A stretch of 64,000 bases of DNA. Origin: Acrocarpospora catenulata. GTDB taxonomy: Bacteria > Actinomycetota > Actinomycetes > Streptosporangiales > Streptosporangiaceae. Of this stretch, positions 1-43,876 are shown piece by piece. The stretch's first letter is position 1. The number at the start of each line of letters is the position of its first letter. Made by a program: the position numbers and the translations under genes. The notes under the pieces are model-generated. The model was given only the letters and a program-made list of their open reading frames with translations, was not told the origin of the DNA and did no database searches. The DNA lies in assembly GCF_018476525.1 (NCBI RefSeq), contig NZ_JAHCST010000002.1, positions 267,909-331,908 of the forward strand, in the 5' to 3' direction.

Positions 1-3000
1 GCTCTGGTGGAGGTCGAGGTCGACCAGCACGAACCGGCCCGGGTGCTCGGCCTCGGCGGCACGTACGAGCCCCCACGTCGTCGCCGCCGCCACGTCATCC
101 CCGTCCACCGCGCCCTGGGTGAGGAACGCCAGCCGCGAATCGGCGAACCGTTCATCGGCGAGCCAGGATCGCACCAGGTCCAGCACGGACGACGCCACAC
201 TGTGCGCGGCCACCGGCACCCCACCGGCCCCACCCGTGGCCACCGGCACCCCACCGGCCCCACCCGTGGCCACCGGCACCCCACCGGCCCCACCCGTGGC
301 CACCGGCACCCCACCGGCCCCACCCGTGGCCACCGGCACCCCACCGGCCCCGCCTGTGGCCACTGGGACCAGCACCGTGCGCGGCATGGGAGCACCGCCC
401 TCGCAGGCCTCTCCCAGCGACCGCAGATCGGCGCCTGTCGTGACGGGACCACCCATGACCTCGGCAAGAGCCTCGGCGAGCCGCCACTCGTCCGGACCCA
501 CCACCGCCAGAGTGCCCGGCGCAACCGCGGGCACCGGCGAAGCCGGGGCGGCCGCCGGGGCCCAGTCCAGCCGGAACAGGCTGTCCCTGCCGATCGCTCG
601 CGAGCCCGCGGCCAGCTCGTCCGGCTGGACGCGCAGTGCCACCGACGTGATCGAGGCCGTGGGACCTCCCGCACCGGCGATCGCGATCGACATCGCATCC
701 GGTCCGGCCCAGGACATCCGCACCCGCACCGCTGAGGCCCCCGCCGCGTGCAGGGACACGCCCTCCCATGCGAAGGGCACCTTGCGCCTGGCCTCCTGGC
801 TCTGGTCGAGGAACAGGCACAGATGCAGCACCGCGTCCAGCAGCGCCGGATGCATGCCGAACGACCCTGCCTCAGCCGCGTCCTGCTCAGGGAGGCCGAT
901 CTCGGCGTACACGTCCGAGCCGCATCGCCACACTGCGGCCAAGCCGCGGAACGCCGGCCCGTAGTCGAAACCGTCCGCCGCCCGCCCCTCGTAGAAGCCG
1001 TCCAGCGAGACCGGCTCCGCGCCGGCCGGCGGCCACACCGTCGTGTCGAATGGGGCATCGGGGGCCGGCGCCTCGACCGCCAGATGGCCGCCGGCATGCC
1101 GTGTCCACGGCCGCTCTTGCTCATCTTCCGGCCGCGCGTACACGCTCACCGGCCGGCGTCCCCTTTCGTCAGGGCCGCCCAGCCGCACCTGCACCTGGAC
1201 GCCGCCGTGTTCGGGCAGCGTCAACGGCGCGGCAATGGTCAGATCGTCCACCCGGGCGCAGCCGACCTCGTCACCGGCTCGGATCGCCAGCTCAAGGAAC
1301 GCCGTCGCCGGCACCACCACCCGGCCCGACACCATGTGATCGGCCAGCCACGGATGCGACCGCGTCGACAACCGGCCGGTGAAGAGCACCTCGTCGCCGC
1401 CGGCCAGCTCAACGGCCGCTCCCAGCATGGGGTGACCCGGCGCTCCGAGCCCGGCGGCGGTGACATCCCCGGCAGCAGCGAGCGACGGCCTCGGCCAGTA
1501 CCGCCGACGTTGGAAGGCGTAGGTGGGCAGCTCCACCTGGCGGGCGCCCGGGAACATGGCCCGCCAATCGAGCGGCACCCCATGCACATGCAACTCGGCC
1601 AGCGCCGTCATCACCGCGCTCTGCTCATCCCGATCCCTGCGCAGCACCGGCACCAGCACCGCGCCGAGCTCCGCCGCCCCCGCCTCAGCATCGCGCGCCA
1701 AGCCCGCCAGTCCATCGCCACCCGCGACCCCACCCGCGCCCGCGTTCGCCTCGATCTCCGCGGCAAGGGTGTCCTGCGCCATCGCGGTCAGCACCCCATC
1801 GGGGCCCAACTCCAGATAGGCCCGTATGCCCTGAGTCTGGAGCGTGCGGACGCCGTCGGCAAAGCGGACCGCGCCGCGGACCTGGTCCACCCAGTAGCCC
1901 GGCGAGCACAACTGCTCGGCCGTGGCCGCCTGGCCGGTCAGGGTGGAGACGATCGGAATCTGCGGCGGGTTGTAGCTGAGCCTGCTCGCCAGCGTGCGGA
2001 AGTCTTCCAGCATTGGGTCCATCAACGGCGAGTGGAACGCGTGCGAGACCCGCAGCCGCCGCGTTCTGACCCCCTGGGATTCCAGCGCGGCGGCCACCTC
2101 AAGCACCGCCTCCTCGACCCCGGAGACCACCAGCGAGGCAGGACCGTTCACCGCCGCGACCGACACCTCATGCTCACGCCCGGCCAGCAGGTCGGCAACC
2201 TGCTCCTCGGACGCCTGGACCGCGACCATCGCCCCGCCCGCAGGCAGCGCCTGCATCAACCGCGCCCGGGCCGCCACCAGCGCACACGCGTCACTCAGTG
2301 AGAGCACCCCGGCCACGTGAGCCGCCGTGATCTCACCGATCGAGTGCCCGGCCAGCACATCCGGCCGCACACCCCACGAGGACACCAACCGGAACAGAGC
2401 GGTCTCCACCGCGAACAACGCCGGCTGCGCCCACCCCGTCTGATCCAGCGCGTCTGCTTCGGGCGTGCCCGGCTCGGCGAACAGGACCTCGCGCAGCGAA
2501 CAGCCCCGGGGACCCTCTGCCCGCTCGCCCGAAACGCTGTCCGGCTCCCGATCAACCCCCTCCAACAGCGGCTCCAGCTCCGCGATCACCTCATCCAACG
2601 CCTGCGCGAACACCGGGAACCGGTCATACAGCTCCCGGCCCATTCCCGCCCGCTGGCTGCCCTGACCGGTGAACAGCACCGCCAGCTGCGGCTCCGCTCC
2701 GGCCACCCCGCGCACCACACCCGCACCCGGCCGGTCCTCCGCCAGCGCGCCCAGCCCGGCCAGCAGACCATCACGGTCCCCGGCCAGCACCACAGCCCGA
2801 TGCTCGAACACCGACCGCGTCACAGCCAGCGAGAACCCCACATCGGCCAGACCCAGACCAGCAGCACCCTCCAGATGGGCGGCCAGCCGCCCGGCCTGCG
2901 CCCGCAACGCCCCAGCCGACCGACCCGACACCACCACCGGAACCAGCCCCGGAACCAGCCCCGGAACCAGCCCCGGGTCCACCACCGGCTCCGCCGCGAC

Positions 3001-33414: not shown

Positions 33415-34440
33415 TCAGCGGGGAAGGCGCCGATCAGTGACGTTCATGTCGAGCGCGGTGCCCTCGATCCAGGGTTCGGGCTGGGTCAGGAACACCGAAT
33501 CGCCGTCGGTGCCCTCCTGCATCTGCACCCAGCGCCGCATGGCGGCCTGGGTGGTCGGTGACGTGAAGTTCATCAATGCGGCGGTGGCCTCTTGGTTGAG
33601 ACTGGCCCGAGCCGAGATGGAATGGGCGTCGTTGAAGATCCGCTTCTGCTGGGCCACCACCTTCCGCGGCCGGCCGGCGTAGCGTTCCGCCATCCGCTGG
33701 ACCGTGTCCAGCAGGTCCTCGGCCGGCACCACCCGGTTCACCAGACCCAGTTCCAGGGCCTCCTGCGGTGAATAGAAGCGCGCTTCGAGCATCATCTCCA
33801 AAGCTCGGGACGGCCCGACGAGGTGGGCGAGCCGTTGCCCGCCCAAGGCGGTGTTCAACCCCACCGACAGTTCGGGCAGGCCAAAGCCGGCATCACGATC
33901 AGCCGACACGCGCATGTCGAAGAAGACCGACAGCTCCAGGCCACCGCCGCCGCACGGCCCGTTCACCGCGGCGATCCACACCGCCGGGGAATACATCAGC
34001 CGCAGCGCCATCTGATGGAACTGGGTTATCGAGAGCAGTCCACCCAGCGAGGAACGGGCGATCAGACGTTCACCCGCCCATCCCGTCATGGCCCGCACGC
34101 TCCGGAACAGGTGCTGAGCGACCGCATGGGAGATCTCCGGCGCGCCATCCGCGTGCGCGGAGATGCGGGCGACGTCGGCGTGCGTGATGAACCGGCCGGG
34201 CCGCGCACCGGTGACGATGACCGCGCCGACCGAATCGTCGTGCTCCACCGCCTCGACGAGCCGGATGAAGTCCCGCTGCATCGTCGTGGTCATGTAGTTG
34301 AAGGGCGGGTCGTCCACCCGCGCCGTCAGCACCCGGCCCGACTGCTCCAGCCGCAACGTGGACAGTTCGAGACCCGCCGCACCGCCATCCACCGGCTGGG
34401 GATCCGTCTGTTCTCCGCTGGGCGTAGTTGCACGATCCAT
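33415..34440 (-). CDS. Crotonase-fold protein (enoyl-CoA hydratase/isomerase family), last gene of the PKS-E/D/C transcript
   Basis: 341 aa, longer than a typical 260-aa hydratase because of an approximately 30-residue N-terminal and a C-terminal extension. Both glutamates of active hydratases are present: Glu169 in GGGGLELSVFFD and Glu190 in FGLPELSVG, with one extra residue in the loop between them. The oxyanion-hole region reads FITHADVARI. The ATG has AGGAAGG upstream and lies 28 bases after the PKS-C stop, so it belongs to the same transcript. It could hydrate, dehydrate or isomerise an ACP- or CoA-bound intermediate, or act after release. There is no HMG-synthase beta-branching cassette beside it, so that role is unlikely. 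Its exact reaction is unknown. Confidence 0.85.
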   Translation of the reverse strand: MDRATTPSGEQTDPQPVDGGAAGLELSTLRLEQSGRVLTARVDDPPFNYMTTTMQRDFIRLVEAVEHDDSVGAVIVTGARPGRFITHADVARISAHADGAPEISHAVAQHLFRSVRAMTGWAGERLIARSSLGGLLSITQFHQMALRLMYSPAVWIAAVNGPCGGGGLELSVFFDMRVSADRDAGFGLPELSVGLNTALGGQRLAHLVGPSRALEMMLEARFYSPQEALELGLVNRVVPAEDLLDTVQRMAERYAGRPRKVVAQQKRIFNDAHSISARASLNQEATAALMNFTSPTTQAAMRRWVQMQEGTDGDSVFLTQPEPWIEGTALDMNVTDRRLPR

Positions 34441-34468
34441 TGGTCTGAGAAACCTTCCTGGCGAACCT

Positions 34469-37400
34469 TCAGTGTTCCAAGCAGGACCAGCCGTCGATCA
34501 GGCGGGCCGTGTCCGCCGCCTTCTCGGCGAGCATCGAGAAGTGGTTCGCCTCGATCGTCCGTACGGCATGCGACGGGTCGAACGGTGTCGCCCGCCAGTA
34601 ATCCGATTCAGGTTCGACGTCAGAGAACGGCTCCGTGCACTGCACGAACAGCACGGGCGCGTTCACGTTCGCCAGTTCGATGTCGTGCATGATGGCCGAC
34701 CAGTGCGCCATGGCGGACAGTCGCGCGCTGTTGAACTCGCCGAAAACCGTCTCCATCTGCAGGAGGTACTGCAGCACCTGCTCGGACAGCAGCTGCGAAT
34801 CGCCACCTGCCGGGGAATGGAAGGAGTCCAGCATCACCACCCCCGCCGGGGGGATCCCCGACTTCTCCAGGAGACTGGCCGCGCCGTAAGCGAGAACGCC
34901 GCCGGCCGAATGACCGACGAGCACGAACGGTTCCCCCTCACTGGCCTGTGCGACGCTTTCCGCGATGCTCCCGAGGGCGATGTCCATCGTGGCGGGCAGG
35001 CCCTCACCGAGCGCGTAGCCCAGCAGGGGAAGCGCCGAGACGCGTCTTTCCCCCCGGAAGTGCGCGGCGAACCGCGCATACTGGTGAACACCCCCGGTCA
35101 CCGTGGAAGAACTCACGCAGATCAGGCGAGGCCGCGCCGCGCCGTTGGCCAGCGTCACCGGTCGGGGGATTTCCCGCAGGTCGACAGGTGCGTCGTACAT
35201 GGGCCGGGTCCTGGCCACGGCGTAGAGCAGTCCGAACGCTTCCTGCGCTTTCCCGGAACGGAAAGCGCCGCGGAACAACTCGGCCAGGGTGTCGTCCACC
35301 TGGGCGGCCGCCGTCGCCTGGTCCACATTCATCCGGGTGGCGAGCTCATGGCGCAGCCAACGGGCGAGATCGGCGGAATTCTTGTTCTCGAACACCGCCA
35401 CCGGCGGGAATTCCCAGCCAATCGCCTTGACCAGGGAGTTACGCAACTCGGTCGCGGTGAGCGAGTCGAGGCCCAGCTCGAAGAAATCACGTTCGAGATC
35501 GACGTCCGAGGAGTCGCCGTGGCCGAGAACGGCAGCCGCATGACGCCGCACCAGTTCCTCCAGCGCCTCGTGCTGCTGGGCTTCGTCAAGCCCGCGCAAC
35601 CGCTCCCACAACGGGCCGGTCTCGTGTGTTGACGCGGACCGGCGAACACGCCGGGCCGGTCTCGCACCGCGGTCACCGCTGGAGGCGGCGGGGAACCGGT
35701 CGGCCGTGACCGGGCGTAGCACCAGCGAATCCACGGTCAGCACCGGCTCCCCTGCCGGGTCCACCGCCACCAGCGACACCTCGTCCGCGCCGGTCCGGGT
35801 CAACCGCACCCGCAACATCGACGCCCCAGACGCGTGCAGGCACACCCTGCCCCACGACGACGCCCTGTTGTCCGGCCCCCCGTCGCTGTCCGGCCCCCCG
35901 TCGAGGCCGAATGCGGCGGCATGCACCACCGCCTCCAGCAACGCCGGATGCACCCCGAACAAACCCGTTTCGCCGGCTTCTTCCGGCAACGCGACCTCGG
36001 CGAACGCCTCACCATCCTCGCCCCGCCACGCGGCCCGTAACCCCTGGAACGCCGGACCGTAATCGAAACCGTGCTCCGCCAGCCGGTCGTACACCTCGTC
36101 CAACTCGATCACAGCCATCCCCGCCGGCGGCCACGTCCCCACCTCCAGCCGCCCCGCGGCCCGGCCCTCGGGCGCCAGCACACCGGAGGCATGGCGCGTC
36201 CACGACTCGTCGTCAGCCGCCTCGGCAGACCGGACGTAGATGGTCACCGCACGCCGGCCCGCCTCATCCGGGCCACCCACCGCCACCTGCACCGCGACCG
36301 CGTCCGACTCACCCAGCACCAGCGGCGCGACGAGCGTCAGCTCCTCCACCACCTCGCAGCCGACCTGGTCACCCGCCCTGATCGCCAGCTCCACGAACCC
36401 GCTGCCCGGGAAGACCACTGTCCCGGCCACCGTGTGATCGGCCAGCCACGGATGCGACCTCACCGACAGGCGCCCGGTCAGCACCACCCCATCGGTACCG
36501 GCCAGACCCACCGCCGCACCGAGCAGCGGATGGAGCATCGCGGCCTGCCCCAGCGCCGCCACGTCACCCATACCGGAGTCGGCGTTCTCAGGCCAGTACC
36601 GCTGGTGCTGGAAGGCGTAGGTCGGCAGGTCGACCTGGCGACCGCCGGGCAGTACGGCCTGCCAGTCCACCGTCACGCCGCGCACGAACAGCTCGGCCGC
36701 CGAGACCAGCACCCGGTCCAGCCCGCCCTCGTCCCGGCGCAGCGTCCCGGTGATCACCGCGTCCACCGCGGCCTCGCCGACGCATTCGCCGATGCCGATC
36801 GTCAGTACCGGGTGCGGGCTCACCTCCACGAACACGCGGTGACGCTGCTCCAGCAGCTGCCCGATCGCGGGGGCGAAGTTGACCGTGCTGCGCAGGTTGT
36901 CACGCCAGTACGCCGCGTCGAGTTCCGATCCCTCCAGCCACTGGCCGGTCACCGTCGACAACATCGGCACCCGCACCGGCTGCGCCACCACCCCGGTCAG
37001 GACCCGGGCCAGTTCCGCACCGATCAGATCGACCTGGGCCGAGTGCGAGGCGTAGTCCACCGCGATCCGCCGGACCCGCACGTTCTCAGCGGCAAGGCGC
37101 TCGACCAGTTCCTCCACCGCGGCGACCTCACCGGCCACCACCACCGAACCGGGGCCGTTGACCGCCGCGACCGAGATCCGCCCGTCCCAGCCGGCCAGCC
37201 ACTCACGGACCTGGTCGACCGGCAACGCCACCGACGCCATCGCCCCCAGCCCCGCCAGCCGGTCGGCGATCAGACGGCTGCGCAATGCCACCACCCGCGC
37301 GCCGTCCTCCAACGACAGACCACCCGCCACCACCGCAGCCGCGATCTCGCCCTGCGAGTGGCCGACCACGGCGTCCGGGCGCAGGCCGAGCGACTCCCAC

Positions 37401-40400
37401 ACCGCCGCCAGCGACACCATCACCGCGAACGACACCGGCTGGACCACATCCACCCGATCCAGCCCGGGAGCGCCCTCGATCTGACGGATCACGTCCAGTA
37501 GCGACCAGTCCACCAACGGCTCCAACGCCGCCGCGCACTCCTCCATCCGGCCCACGAAGACCGGCGACTCCTCAAGCAGGGCGGCACCCATGCCCGCCCA
37601 CTGCGCCCCCTGACCCGGGAACACCCACACCGACTTCCCGACGACGTCGGCCACACCCGCGACCACCCGAGCAGCCGGCTCGTCGGCCTCGACCGCGGAC
37701 AGGCCCGCCAGCAGTTCCTGACGGTCACGTCCGACCACCACCGCACGGTGCTCGAACACCGACCGCGACACCACCAGCGAGAACGCCGTATCGAGCAGCG
37801 CCACCTCACGACGGCCATCCACATGCGAGGCCAGCCGCCCGGCCTGCGCCCGCAACGCCTGACCCGTCTTGGCCGACACCACCACCGGCACCACACCACC
37901 AGCCGACGCCGGAACCTCCACCACCGGTCCGGCCGGAACCTCCGGCCCCTCCTCCAAGATCACATGCGCGTTGGTGCCGCTGATCCCGAAGGAGGAGACA
38001 CCGGCCCGGCGCGGGTGACCGTTCCGCGGCCACTCGGCCGACTCGGTCAGCAGCTCCACCGCACCCGCCGACCAGTCCACATGCGAGGACGGCGCATCCA
38101 CATGCAAGGTCTGGGGCAGCACCCCATGCCGCATCGCCAGCACCATCTTGATCACACCCGCCACACCGGAGGCGGCCTGCGTGTGACCGATGTTCGACTT
38201 GATCGCGCCCAGCATCAGCGGCCGATCCTCCGGCCGATCCTGCCCATAGGCCGCCAGCAGCGCCTGCGCCTCGATCGGATCACCCAGCGTGGTACCGGTG
38301 CCGTGCGCCTCCACCGCGTCCACCTCGGACGGCGACACTCCGGCATTGGCCAGCGCCTGCCGGATCACCCGCTGTTGAGAAGGACCGTTCGGCGCCGTCA
38401 ACCCATTGGACGCGCCGTCCTGGTTGACCGCCGAACCACGCATGATCGCCAGCACCTGATGCCCGTTGCGCTGAGCGTCCGACAACCGCTCCAGCACCAC
38501 CACACCCACACCCTCGGACCAGGTCGTGCCGTCGGCGGTGTCGGAGAACGCCTTGCACCGGCCGGTCGCCGACAGCCCGCCCGTCGCGCTGAAGCCGATG
38601 AACACCCCCGGGGTGGCCAGCACGGTCACACCACCGGCCAGCGCCAGATCGCACTCGCCCGAGCGCAGCGCCTGCGCCGCAAGATGCATCGCCACCAGCG
38701 ACGACGAGCAGGACGTGTCCACCGTCACCGCCGGACCCTCCAACCCCAGCGTGTACGAAATCCGGCCGGTCACGACGCTTCCCGCGGTACCGGTGCTGAC
38801 GAAAGCCATCACCTCCGGCTGGAGGCCGACGCTCATCACGTAGTCGTGGTGGATCAGCCCGGCGAACACACCGGTACTACTGCCGCGCAGTGAGACCGGG
38901 TCGATCCCGGCCCGCTCGATCGCCTCCCAGGACGTCTCCAGCAGCAACCGCTGCTGCGGATCCATCCCCAGCGCCTCACGCGGCGAAATACCGAAGAACC
39001 CCGGATCGAAGTCGGGCGCGTCAAAGAGGAACCCGCCCTGGAAGTCCAGCTCGCCCTGCGCCTGCCAGCCCCGGTCCCTGGGCACCGGCGAGATGGCGTC
39101 CCGGCCGTCGGCGACCAGCTGCCACAGATCTTCCGGAGAGCTCACTCCCCCCGGATAGCGGCAGGCCATCGACACGATCACGATCGGATCGTCCGCCACC
39201 GGCCCCACCGCCGACGGCGCCGCCACCTGCGCCTGCCCGCCCAGCAACTCCGCCAGCAGGTGGTCCGCCAGTACGGCCGGTGTCGGATAGTCGAAAACCA
39301 TCGTGGCCGGCAGGTTCAAACCGGTCGCGGCCTGGAGCGCGTTGCGGAGCTCGACCGCGGTCAGCGAGTCGAATCCGAGGTCCTTGAAGGCCCGTCCGGT
39401 CTCGATCGCATCCGCGCCGGAATGCCGCAGCACCACGGCGACCTGCTCGCGGACCATGTCACGCAGGATCTGCGACCGCTCGCCCGCCGCCAGCTCACCC
39501 AGCCGTGCCCGCAGCGCGGCGGCCGCCGACTGCTCGTCCTCCCGGATGGCACGGCCCGCCTCGACCAGACTCCGCACTTCCGGCAGATCGCCGAGCAGAG
39601 CGCTCTCCCGCACGGCCGTGAACGTCGGGGCGAACCGCTCCCAGGCGATGTCCGCGACCGCGACGGCCGCGTCGCGGTGCGCGACCGCCCGCCACAACGC
39701 GGTGACGGCCACACCCGGCGTCATCACCCGCACGCCACGCCGGGAAAGGTAGTCCTGTGCCGCGCCGGCGGCCATGCCGTCCCCGGCCCAGGGGCCCCAG
39801 GCGACCGAGGTCGCCGCGGCCGCGCGCGCCCGCCGCTGTTCGGCGAGAGCGTCAAGACAGGCGTTGGCGGCGGCGTACGCGGCCTGGCCACCACTGCCCC
39901 ACACTGCGGCGATCGAGGAGAACAGCACGAAGAAATCGAGCTCGCGGTCGCCCAGCAACGCGTCGAGGTTCAGCGCGCCGACGACCTTGGCCCGCATCAC
40001 CTCGGCCAACTCGGCGGCATCCAGCCAGTCCAGACTGTTGGCCGGGCTGACACCGGCGGCATGGACCACCCCGGTCAGCGGGCACTCGGCCGGGATGTCG
40101 GCCAGCACCGCCGCGAGGGCGTCCGCATCGGCCACGTCGCACGCCACGACGGACACCCTGGCCCCCAACGCGGTCAGTTCCGCGCTCAGCTCGGCCGCTC
40201 CGTCGGCGTCCATGCCTCGCCTGCTGGTCAGCAGGAGATGTTCGGCGCCCTCGGCCGCCAGCCACCGGGCCACGTGAGCGCCGAGCGCTCCCGTGCCACC
40301 AGTGATCAAGACCGTGCCGTGTGGTTTGGGAGTGGTGTCGATCCCCCGGTACGGGGCGTGGGCGAGCCTGCGGCCATAGACGCCGGTCGAGCGGATCGCC

Positions 40401-43400
40401 AGCTGATCCTCGGAGTCGGGCAGGGTGAGGATGCCCGCCAGCCAGGTCACCACCCGCTGGTCCAGCGTCTGGGGAAGGTCGATGAGGCCGCCCCACCGGT
40501 GCGGGTACTCCAGCGCGGCCACCCGGCCAAGGCCCCAGACGCCCGCCTGAGCCGGGCTCGGAGCCGTATCGGATCGGCCGATCGAGACCGCGCCCTTCGT
40601 GAGGCACCACAACGGCACCTCGGCACCGGCATCACCAAGCGCCTGCAGCAGAGTCACCGTCAGCGCCGAAACCGCCGAGACATCCGCCGCCGCGGTCTCA
40701 CGCAACGCCAGCAGCGACGCCACCCCGGCCGGCTCCACTCCGGAGTCGAGGAGCCCGCGCACCTGATCGGCGAGCGCGAACCGGTCCGGCGCGGACACCT
40801 CCAGCCGTACGGCCGCGGCCCCGAACATCTGGACCACGGACTCCACCCAGTCCTCGCCTGCCAGTTCCGCGGGCACCACAACCAGCCAGGAGCCCGGGAC
40901 GGCAGCGCCCGAGACGCTGGTCAGCGGCTTCCAGATGACGCGGTACCGCCAGGAGTCCGCCACGGACGTCTCGCGCCGGGCTCGGCGCCAGGACGTCAAC
41001 GCCGGCAACACCGCACCGAGCGTCTCCTGCTCCACATCCAGCCGCGCCGCCAGCGACTGAAGATCCTCCCGCTCAATGGTGGCCCAGAACTCCGCGTCCA
41101 CCGGATCGGCCCCGGCGGCACTGTCGGCGGGGGCGCCGGCCTCGGGCCACAACCGCTCACGCTGAAAGGCGTAGGTGGGCAGGCCGACCCCGCGCCCGGG
41201 CGGGATCACCGTCTCCCAGCTCACCGGCACCCCGTGCACGTGCAGACGAGCCAGCGCCTCGGTGACGGCCTCGTGCTCATCCCGGCCCCTGCGCAGCACC
41301 GGCACCAGCACAACCTCTTCCAGGGCGGCGTGGCTCGCGACACCCGAGCCTGGGTCGGCCAACGTTTCTTGGGCCATGGCGGTCAGGACACCGCCGGGGC
41401 CCAGCTCCAGATAGGCCCGCACACCCTGTGCGTGCAGCGTACGGACGCCGTCGGCGAAGCGGACCGCGCCACGGACCTGGTCCACCCAGTAGTCCGGCGA
41501 GCACAACTGCTCGTCCGTGGCCGGCTCCCCGGTCAGGGTGGACACGATGGGGATCCGCAGCGGGCTGTAGGCCAATCCGCTCGCCAGCGTGCGGAAGTCT
41601 TCCAGCATCGGGTCCATCAGCGGCGAATGGAACGCATGCGACACCCGCAACCCCCGCGTCCTGATCCCCTGGGATTCCAGGACCGCGGCGACCTCAAGCA
41701 CCGCCTCCTCGACACCGGAGATCACCACCGAGGCCGGGCCGTTGACGGCGGCGATCGACACCTCGGTCTCACGCCCGGCCAGCAGCCCGGCGACCTCCTC
41801 CTCCGAGGCCTGGACCGCCACCATCGCCCCGCCCGCGGGCAGCGCCTGCATGAACCGCGCCCGGCCCGCCACCAGCGCACACGCATCGCTCAGTGAAAGC
41901 ACCCCGGCCATGTGCGCCGCCGCGAGTTCCCCGATCGAGTGCCCTGCCAGCACATCCGGCCGCACCCCCCACGATTCGACCAGCCGGAACAGCGCCGTCT
42001 CCAGCGCGAACAGCGCGGGCTGCGCCCACCCCGTCTGGTCCAGCAACTCCGCCTCGGCGAACATGACGTCGCGCAGCGGCCTGTCGAGCAGCGGGTCCAG
42101 CTCCGCGACCACCTCGTCCAAAGCCTTGGCGAACACCGGGAAACGGTCGTACAACTCCCGGCCCATCCCCGCCCGCTGACTGCCCTGGCCGGTGAACAGG
42201 AACGCGAGCCGGGGCTCCTCACCGGCCACCCCGCGCACCACATTCGCACCCGGTAGGTCCTCCGCAACCGCGCCCAGCCCGGCCAGCAGACCATCGCGGT
42301 CCCCGGCAAGCACCACCGCACGATGCTCGAACGCCGACCGCGTCGTAGCCAGCGAGAACGCGGTGTCGGTGAGCGCCACCTCGGGGTGGCCCTCCACATG
42401 CGAGGCCAGCTGTCCGGCCTGCGCCCGCAACGCCTGACCCGTCTTGGCCGACACCAGCACCGGCACCACACCCGGCGCCTGATCCTCGCCACGCGACTCC
42501 GCCGCAGGAGCCTCCGGCCCCTCCTCCAAGATCACATGTGCGTTGGTGCCGCTGATCCCGAACGATGACACCCCCGCCCGGCGCGGACGACCGGTCTCCG
42601 GCCACTCCACCGGCTTGGTCAGCAGCTCCACCGCACCCGCCGACCAGTCCACATGCGAAGACGGCGCATCCACATGCAAGGTCCTGGGCAGCACCCCATG
42701 CCGCATCGCCAGCACCATCTTGATCACACCCGCGACCCCGGCGGCCGCCTGCGTGTGACCGATGTTCGACTTGATCGCGCCCAGCAGCAGCGGACGATCC
42801 CCCGGCCGGTCCTTGCCATACGTGGCCAGCAGCGCCTGCGCCTCGATCGGATCGCCCAAGGCCGTACCGGTGCCATGCGCCTCCACCGCGTCCACCTCGG
42901 ACGGCGACAAACCGGCGCTGACCAGCGCCTCCCGGATCACCCGACGCTGCGAAGGACCGTTCGGCGCGGTCAACCCGTTCGACGCGCCGTCCTGGTTGAC
43001 CGCCGAACCACGCACGACCGCCAGCACCTGGTGCCCGTTACGGCGCGCGTCCGACAGCCGCTCCAGCACCAGCACGCCGACACCTTCCGACCAGATGGTG
43101 CCGTCCGCCGAGTCGGAGAACGCCTTGCAGCGACCGTCCGGCGCCAGCCCGCCCTGGACGCCGAAACCGATGAACGCCAACGGCGTCGTCATCACCGTGA
43201 CACCGCCGGCCAGTGCCAGCGAGCATTCGCCCGTCCGCAGGGCCTGAGCCGCAAGGTGCAACGTCACCAGCGACGATGAGCAGGCGGTGTCCAACGTCAC
43301 CGCCGGGCCCTCCAACCCCAGGGTGTACGAGAGACGGCCGGACAACACGCTGGCCGACAGACCGGTAAGGCCATGACCCTGCGTATCCGCTTGCGTACTC

Positions 43401-43876
43401 ATGATCACATTGGCGTAGTCCTGGCCGTTGGTGCCGACGAACACGCCGGTGGAGCTGCCCTTCAGCGAGACCGGGTCGATCCCGGCGCGCTCGATCGCCT
43501 CCCAGACCGTCTCCAGCAGCACCCGCTGCTGCGGATCCATCGCCAGCGCCTCACGCGGCGAGATGCCGAAGAACCCGGCGTCGAACTCCGCCACATCAGG
43601 CAGGAACCCGCCCTGGCACCCAACGCCCAGCGCCGACAGCATCTCCGCATCCCAGCCCCGATCGGCTGGGAAGGGCGATATCGCGTCCTCACCTTCGGCC
43701 AGCAACCGCCACAAATCTTCAGGAGAGCCGACCCCGCCCGGATACCGGCACGCCATCGACACGATGGCGATCGGCTCATGCCTACCGGACTCCACCTCTT
43801 CGAGCCGCCGACGAGTCTCGTGCAGATCGGCGGTGACCCATTTCAGGTACTCGACGAGCTTTCGGTCTTCAGACAT
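34469..43876 (-). CDS. Modular type I PKS (PKS-C): KS-AT-KR-ACP, KS-AT-DH-ACP-TE, terminal protein
   Basis: 3135 aa; the ATG has GAAGGA upstream. An N-terminal docking coil ([17 protein letters not shown]) comes first. C1: KS (Cys200), AT with GHSIGE (644) and HAFH (746), malonyl; no DH, but a dimerisation-element-like stretch ([20 protein letters not shown]); KR near 1186 with Trp in [12 protein letters not shown] and no LDD, hence A-type; ACP near 1503. C2: KS (Cys1723), AT with GHSQGE (2171) and YASH (2275), methylmalonyl; DH with intact [10 protein letters not shown] (2480) but Glu2648 where the family has Asp (LLEAVVH); no KR at all; ACP near 2803 (GLDSL); TE from about 2905 with GHSAGG (2991). 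Predicted end of chain: 2-methyl-3-keto-5-hydroxy. The TE should release the chain by cyclisation or hydrolysis. Confidence 0.97.

What the first reader, a model, noticed from the sequence alone, without database searches (positions are those of the whole stretch)
33415..36560. Terminal PKS module without KR, with an altered DH, followed by a crotonase in the same transcript
Seen: in C2 the sequence runs from the end of DH almost straight into the ACP, with no KR, whereas the related D2 module has a full KR there. The DH keeps its His ([10 protein letters not shown]) but has Glu2648 in place of the catalytic Asp. The next gene, 28 bases on, is a crotonase with both catalytic glutamates. Known: narbonolide's last module (PikAIV) also lacks a KR and leaves a 3-keto group. 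Inference: C2 lost its KR and the DH is a relic, giving a ketolide-like 3-keto-5-hydroxy-2-methyl end; alternatively the DH or the crotonase acts on another position (dehydration, double-bond shift or ring formation).
Basis: partly seen in the sequence, partly recalled or inferred. Interest (0 to 1): 0.7.

Follow-up and report, generated by a model that had tools for sequence, protein, structure and literature searches.

The report
Keto-ending polyketide assembly line with crotonase
The last station of a giant bacterial polyketide assembly line has lost its ketone-reducing domain and, in five related gene clusters, is followed by the same crotonase-type enzyme, which suggests that this enzyme works on the unreduced keto end of the chain around release.

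Summary
The anatomy is confirmed. The last module, C2, is KS-AT(methylmalonyl)-DH-ACP-TE without KR. The KR was lost by in-frame excision: the post-DH linker runs into the post-KR linker. The DH has Glu for Asp and RASSW for the usual [LV]PFSW, and it is absent in three of the four related clusters, so it is most likely a relic.

Comparison adds something new. Five clusters in one family (three Acrocarpospora, Thermocatellispora, one further genus) share ACP, TE and crotonase at 68-96% identity to the window, although terminal AT types and upstream modules differ. All five lack the terminal KR, against 1 of 21 other TE modules examined. Their terminal ACPs carry GW[EQ]FP, seen in 0 of 147 other ACPs. 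The five TEs fall in one group, so this may be a single origin. One member has a fully reducing penultimate module, so a 5-hydroxyl is not a shared substrate; a 3-oxoacyl-ACP is. Beta-branching is not supported: no HMG-CoA synthase match in 5 of 5 genomes.

Best reading: a 3-oxo chain end handled by a dedicated crotonase on the terminal ACP. The chemistry is unresolved. New variant of a known kind.

The parts
33415..34440 (-). crotonase (ECH_1 family, 341 aa), E169 and E190 conserved in 5 of 5 orthologs
34472..35176 (-). type I thioesterase domain of C2 (GHSAG Ser, VMLDSF Asp, ANHFSM His); best-scoring solved chain ScnS4 (7vo4)
35354..35581 (-). terminal ACP of C2 with the GWEFP signature
35630..35677 (-). 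in-frame KR excision scar: post-DH linker joined to post-KR linker ([16 protein letters not shown])
35708..36532 (-). relic DH of C2, His kept, Glu2648 for Asp (codon 35933-35935), RASSW for [LV]PFSW
36803..37621 (-). AT of C2, methylmalonyl type (GHSQG, DYASHS)
37952..39184 (-). KS of C2 (DTSCSSS)
34469..43876 (-). PKS gene C: module C1 (KS-AT malonyl-KR-ACP) and module C2 (KS-AT-DH-ACP-TE)

Best explanation
C2 is the last (32nd predicted) extension module of a giant type I PKS. It condenses a methylmalonyl unit and, having no KR and a DH that is altered and without substrate, leaves a 2-methyl-3-oxo-5-hydroxyacyl chain on a special terminal ACP. The crotonase encoded just downstream is recruited in trans to that ACP and uses its oxyanion hole to form the C2 enolate (or enol) of the 3-oxo thioester, before or together with release by the thioesterase. 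Shown: domain content, KR excision, DH motif changes and DH loss in relatives, and the conserved ACP-TE-crotonase set in five clusters. Inferred: 3-oxo product end, action on the ACP-bound chain. Not known: what the enolate does next (hydrolytic C2-C3 cleavage, ring closure, or keeping the end in an enol or cyclised form).
For: Crotonase orthologs (80% identical or more) occur in 5 of 341 genomes of the family, the window's own included, each directly downstream of a TE-bearing terminal module with gaps of about 16-240 bases. All 5 of those modules lack KR, whereas 20 of 21 other TE modules examined have one, and no crotonase was found in the DNA fetched around these. Terminal AT type, DH and the rest of the line vary, but TE and crotonase stay at 79-96% identity to the window. 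C2's ACP is at most 49% identical to other ACPs on C94 and C149, while its KS and AT reach 85% and 91%. GW[EQ]FP is in 5 of 5 terminal ACPs and in none of 126 internal and 21 other terminal ACPs. G359 shares the 3-oxo end but not the 5-hydroxyl.
Against: The five TEs fall in one group (with G348, which has a KR and no crotonase; inner order unresolved), so KR loss, crotonase and the ACP signature may have been acquired once and inherited together without a functional link. G360 has a KR-less terminal module and TE without a crotonase nearby, so a 3-oxo end does not require one. The crotonase looks less constrained than the TE (dN/dS 0.58 against 0.18, window versus A. pleiomorpha; the crotonase frame compared included some 15-19 residues before its ATG). 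No crotonase acting on a terminal PKS ACP was seen in the listings.
Confidence: 0.5

Rival explanations
1. The 3-oxo end simply goes to the TE as in pikromycin-type lines, and the crotonase works elsewhere (precursor supply, post-PKS tailoring) or is a passenger of the TE gene.
For: 3-oxo release needs no crotonase: G360. Relatively high dN/dS of the crotonase. One group of TEs only.
Against: The accessory genes of the clusters differ: sugar genes in Acrocarpospora and G359, methoxymalonyl-type genes in G031, the window's line and A. macrocephala, but the crotonase stays next to the TE in 5 of 5. Methoxymalonyl-type genes were not found in the stretches fetched of G359 and A. pleiomorpha, and the G031 loading KS is not KSQ, so neither feature explains the crotonase. 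Both catalytic Glu are kept.
Confidence: 0.3
2. A reductase in trans (for example FabG or a 3-hydroxyacyl-CoA dehydrogenase) reduces the 3-oxo group and the crotonase dehydrates it, replacing the lost KR and DH and giving a 2-enoyl end.
For: Two-Glu hydratase active site. 17 of 21 other TE modules examined have a DH and 20 of 21 a KR in the terminal module, so a 2-enoyl end is usual there. In G031 the gene right after the crotonase is a 3-hydroxyacyl-CoA dehydrogenase (PF02737, PF00725), and a 62% identical copy lies at the far end of the window's line on C149.
Against: That dehydrogenase sits in a block with an acyl-CoA dehydrogenase, a small ACP-like frame and a HAD-type protein (the ACP by eye), the usual methoxymalonyl-ACP set (recalled), and was not found in the 100 kb fetched of G359. 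No free-standing PKS-type KR at E <= 1e-20 in the genome. Not every ORF of the clusters was scanned with profiles.
Confidence: 0.12
3. The crotonase (or the altered DH) acts on the 5-hydroxyl: dehydration, double-bond shift or ring formation.
For: The 5-hydroxyl is predicted in 4 of 5 clusters.
Against: G359 has the crotonase and a complete DH-ER-KR penultimate module. The DH is missing in 3 of 5 clusters.
Confidence: 0.05
4. Beta-branching: the crotonase is the ECH of an HMG-CoA-synthase cassette acting on the 3-oxo group.
For: Beta-branching uses KR-less modules and crotonases (established knowledge).
Against: No HMG-CoA synthase family match in 5 of 5 genomes. The Trp at Ser+6 of branching ACPs (recalled) is Leu in 5 of 5.
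Confidence: 0.02

Closest known systems
Pikromycin/narbonolide PikAIV terminal module (recalled; TE compared by sequence)
   Same: KR-less last module with methylmalonyl AT and a type I TE; 3-oxo end
   Different: C2 keeps a relic DH; its TE scores higher against ScnS4 (208.5 bits) than against the PikAIV chains (112.2 bits at most); as recalled, the pikromycin line has no crotonase
HMG-CoA-synthase beta-branching cassettes with ACP flag (recalled)
   Same: A trans crotonase and a marked ACP at a 3-oxo stage
   Different: No HCS match, the Trp is at another place of the ACP, and a single crotonase
Meijiemycin-related linear polyene polyol clusters (PMC8944477, section 10 read)
   Same: That review reports incomplete related clusters in A. 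macrocephala and A. pleiomorpha with dTDP-glucose 4,6-dehydratase and an extra glycosyltransferase, as here
   Different: Identity of those clusters with this one is not proven; the words crotonase and enoyl-CoA hydratase do not occur in its main text
Crotonase superfamily beta-diketone hydrolases such as 6-oxocamphor hydrolase and BadI (recalled)
   Same: Enolate chemistry on 1,3-dicarbonyl substrates
   Different: Not compared here; no evidence for membership, and P0002 has the two Glu of hydratases

Membership tests
KR-less 3-oxo-releasing terminal module | no KR in the terminal module | tested here: met
KR-less 3-oxo-releasing terminal module | intact KS, AT, ACP and TE motifs | tested here: met
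KR-less 3-oxo-releasing terminal module | product with a C-3 ketone | not testable with these tools
   no product is known
functional PKS dehydratase | catalytic His and Asp | tested here: not met
   His kept, Asp replaced by Glu; FabA/FabZ use Glu (recalled), so this change alone is not proof of death
functional PKS dehydratase | [LV]PFSW motif (seen in 21 of 31 DHs of this genome) | tested here: not met
   RASSW in C2 and in its A. pleiomorpha ortholog
HMG-CoA-synthase beta-branching cassette | HMG-CoA synthase homolog | tested here: not met
   0 of 5 genomes
HMG-CoA-synthase beta-branching cassette | ACP Trp flag at Ser+6 (recalled) | tested here: not met
   Leu in 5 of 5
enoyl-CoA hydratase/isomerase (ECH_1) | Pfam profile above cut-off | tested here: met
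   121.2 bits, cut-off 27
enoyl-CoA hydratase/isomerase (ECH_1) | two catalytic Glu | tested here: met
   E169, E190
named NCBIfam enoyl-CoA hydratase equivalogs | score above the curated cut-off | tested here: not met
   best 110.8 bits against a cut-off of 313; none of the 25 shown of 70 matched families reaches its cut-off
named NCBIfam enoyl-CoA hydratase equivalogs | hydratase activity | not testable with these tools
   no assay; the AlphaFold model was too poor to use

The most novel reading that the evidence does not exclude
The crotonase is a chain-end editing enzyme: recruited to a Trp-marked terminal ACP, it forms the enolate of the 3-oxo thioester and cleaves or cyclises the chain end there. 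In the boldest version it removes the last extender unit by retro-Claisen hydrolysis, which would explain why AT type and DH of the terminal module drift freely among the five clusters while ACP, TE and crotonase do not.
Probability: 0.12. Interest if true: 0.75.

Novelty: new variant of a known kind. Interest (0 to 1): 0.45.

Why it matters
KR-less terminal modules are known, but a crotonase tied to the release ACP and TE of a cis-AT modular PKS outside beta-branching was not seen in the listings of the paper searches made here. If it acts on the ACP-bound 3-oxo chain it would be a new trans-acting step at polyketide release, testable with two small proteins. The comparison also shows how terminal modules are remodelled in nature: AT exchange, KR excision and DH deletion, all in frame, around a conserved ACP-TE unit.

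Tried and rejected
Beta-branching (no HCS match, no ACP flag). A PKS-type KR in trans. A role in methoxymalonyl-ACP supply: the genes are present in the window's line, A. macrocephala and G031, but not found in the stretches fetched of G359 or A. pleiomorpha. Loading-module chemistry as the shared feature: the G031 loader is not KSQ. Reaction on the 5-hydroxyl (G359). dN/dS as a test of DH decay was inconclusive: the C2 DH at 0.35 lies within the range 0.10-0.41 of the other six DHs compared. AlphaFold model of the crotonase with a 4-row alignment: mean pLDDT 36.7, not used; a scan of viral contigs for a deeper alignment gave no relative. Second-tier crotonases (30-36% identity): in eight regions of about 18-20 kb the script printed only ER-like matches and no KS, AT, DH, KR, ACP or TE, so they were not used as functional guides; one more (G080) likewise printed none. 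Plasmid search gave only matches below 60% identity.

Literature: searches. Passages read in PMC8698034, PMC8621364 and PMC8944477, and section 10 of the last. The other papers were seen in listings only.

Full report
WHAT IS THERE. The window lies on contig C94 of a 10.29-Mb genome. P0001 (34469-43876, minus strand) holds C1 (KS-AT malonyl-KR-ACP) and C2 (KS-AT methylmalonyl-DH-ACP-TE). Pfam finds a single KR in P0001, in C1. The thioesterase has Ser, Asp and His motifs and scores best among solved chains against ScnS4 (208.5 bits), ahead of FluC, tylactone synthase and PikAIV.

SIZE OF THE LINE. Counting KS domains on the minus strand of C149 and C94 gives 33, one of them in the loading module, so 32 extension modules. 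Two of these are pieced together by inference: one module whose frame changes near the window start, and one cut by the ends of C149 and C94. That C149 runs into C94 is inferred, because the nine-module gene cut there is a single open frame in A. macrocephala and A. pleiomorpha.

HOW THE KR WENT. In D1, D2 and other KR-bearing modules a post-DH linker (for example [15 protein letters not shown]) leads to the KR region and a post-KR linker (for example [12 protein letters not shown]) leads to the ACP. In C2 the two are fused: [30 protein letters not shown], then the ACP. A. pleiomorpha has the same fusion. A. macrocephala went further: its terminal module keeps the AT-DH linker and the first residues of the DH (HPLLGAA) and then jumps to the ACP linker. 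By crotonase identity A. macrocephala is nearer to the window than A. pleiomorpha is, so the DH was most likely present in the ancestor of the three and deleted in one (inference).

THE DH. Among 93 DH domains scored, 87 have Asp at the catalytic place, 2 have Glu (C2 and its ortholog), 1 has Thr and 3 gave no motif. C2 also reads RASSW, where 21 of the 31 DHs of this genome have [LV]PFSW. Its dN/dS (0.35) is not outside the range of the other six DHs compared, so decay rests on motifs, on deletion in relatives and on the lack of a substrate, not on rate.

THE CROTONASE IN OTHER GENOMES. A scan of genome contigs (84,980 species genomes by its description) with one protein, a search that finds close relatives only, gave 4 loci, 3 of them orthologs: A. 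macrocephala, A. pleiomorpha and Thermocatellispora tengchongensis (G031); the fourth is a generic hydratase match. A search of 341 genomes of the family gave 10 with a match at E <= 1e-26, of which 5, the window included, are 80% identical or more; the fifth is G359. In a class-wide sample of 394 genomes no other genome listed exceeded 36%. In all five the crotonase follows the terminal PKS gene directly, with gaps of about 28, 16, 16, 55 and 240 bases. All five terminal modules lack KR; two of five have the DH; two have methylmalonyl and three malonyl AT motifs.

CONTROL SET. A TE search of 341 genomes listed 52 other places at E <= 1e-40. I took the 20 best of the 52. Their stretches hold 21 TE modules (one stretch has two): 20 have a KR, 17 have a DH, and 1 (G360) has neither. 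No crotonase was found in the fetched DNA of any, nor in 12 kb more for G348 and 20 kb more for G360. Several modules run off contig ends, but their KR is visible. On the TE tree the five crotonase-linked TEs lie in one well supported six-row group (100/98) whose sixth row is the G348 TE, with KR and without crotonase; G360 lies elsewhere. The order inside the group is unresolved and the G348 row is a long branch, so whether the five are a clade on their own is not shown; the tree needs 3 label changes, of which well supported branches force 2. The data are compatible with one origin of the KR-less, crotonase-linked state and do not give several independent ones.

WHAT STAYS AND WHAT CHANGES. 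Window against G031: KS 72%, AT 43%, ACP 68%, TE 80%, crotonase 80%. Window against G359: KS 76%, AT 40%, ACP 78%, TE 86%, crotonase 85%. Among the modules of C94 and C149, C2's KS, AT and DH are up to 85%, 91% and 75% like others, but its ACP is at most 49%. The ACP-TE-crotonase set therefore behaves as a unit onto which local KS-AT(-DH) pieces have been fitted. The five terminal ACPs share GW[EQ]FP; no other ACP had this motif (0 of 126 internal, 0 of 21 terminal), and at the Trp place 137 of the 147 have Leu.

WHAT THE CROTONASE MAY DO. The only predicted chemical feature common to all five chain ends is the 3-oxo thioester. The 5-hydroxyl is missing in G359, whose penultimate module is DH-ER-KR with intact motifs and whose terminal gene carries the same docking ends as genes D and C of the window. 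The 2-methyl is missing in three. Crotonase-fold enzymes hold a thioester in an oxyanion hole and form its enolate (established knowledge), which fits a 3-oxo substrate. The ACP signature argues for an ACP-bound substrate but may be plain inheritance. Both hydratase Glu are kept in 5 of 5, while the loop after the second Glu (GLNTALGGQRL in the window) differs from the usual PGxGGTQRL form (recalled). No NCBIfam equivalog shown claims it. Its dN/dS against A. pleiomorpha, 0.58, is higher than that of 40 of the 41 PKS domains compared on that pair, though the frame used included some residues before the ATG. I cannot choose between C2-C3 hydrolysis, cyclisation and other uses of the enolate.

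ALTERNATIVES TESTED. HMG-CoA synthase: no match in 5 of 5 genomes. All 39 KR-family matches at E <= 1e-20 in the genome are in frames of 2174 aa or more. Against this, a possible reductase does exist: in G031 the gene after the crotonase is a 3-hydroxyacyl-CoA dehydrogenase, with a 62% identical copy on C149; both sit in what looks like a methoxymalonyl-ACP block (recalled set), and no copy was found in the 100 kb of G359. The genes between the crotonase and the loading gene in the window are a DegT aminotransferase, a glycosyltransferase, a dTDP-glucose 4,6-dehydratase (383.2 bits, cut-off 365.1), a C-methyltransferase, a free-standing thioesterase and an ABC-2 type transporter with a DrrA-like ATPase.

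LITERATURE. A review (PMC8944477, section 10 read) reports incomplete clusters related to the linear polyene polyol meijiemycin in A. macrocephala and A. pleiomorpha, with a dTDP-glucose 4,6-dehydratase and an unassigned glycosyltransferase. This fits the present cluster, but I could not prove identity; the aminotransferase here reaches no NCBIfam cut-off. The paper on Acrocarpospora PKS clusters (doi 10.2323/jgam.2020.01.001) is not held.

VERDICT. Observation right, with the TE and the scar added. Interpretation right on KR loss and most likely on the relic DH, not supported for the 5-hydroxyl. The new point is a conserved crotonase with a marked terminal ACP at a 3-oxo release step; interesting and testable, mechanism open.

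Noticed in passing
window 1-1145: The PKS gene downstream of P0005 changes frame between DH and KR of one module (overlapping open frames C94:267636-285263 and 261005-269053): a sequence error or a real frameshift. No intact counterpart was seen; the A. macrocephala contig ends inside that module.
   Followed up: partly
C149:77341-80718 (L051, L136): Methoxymalonyl-ACP type genes (FkbH-like HAD protein, acyl-CoA dehydrogenase, ACP, 3-hydroxyacyl-CoA dehydrogenase; names from the G031 homologs and recall) at the other end of the same PKS line, 52-65% identical to those next to the G031 crotonase.
   Followed up: partly
C94:217759-252006 (L011, L012): A second modular PKS on the plus strand with lower domain scores, next to the window; probably a separate cluster.
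   Followed up: no
G359:6634034-6634942 and 6640590-6641474 (L086): Two copies of the free-standing thioesterase gene, 98% identical to each other, within 7.5 kb.
   Followed up: no
window 33415-34440: The crotonase has a higher dN/dS against A. pleiomorpha (0.58) than 40 of the 41 PKS domains compared on that pair; only the C2 ACP is higher (0.98).
   Followed up: no
terminal AT of A. macrocephala (L041-L042): Natural AT exchange: terminal KS 92% identical to the window but AT only 41%, malonyl instead of methylmalonyl type.
   Followed up: partly
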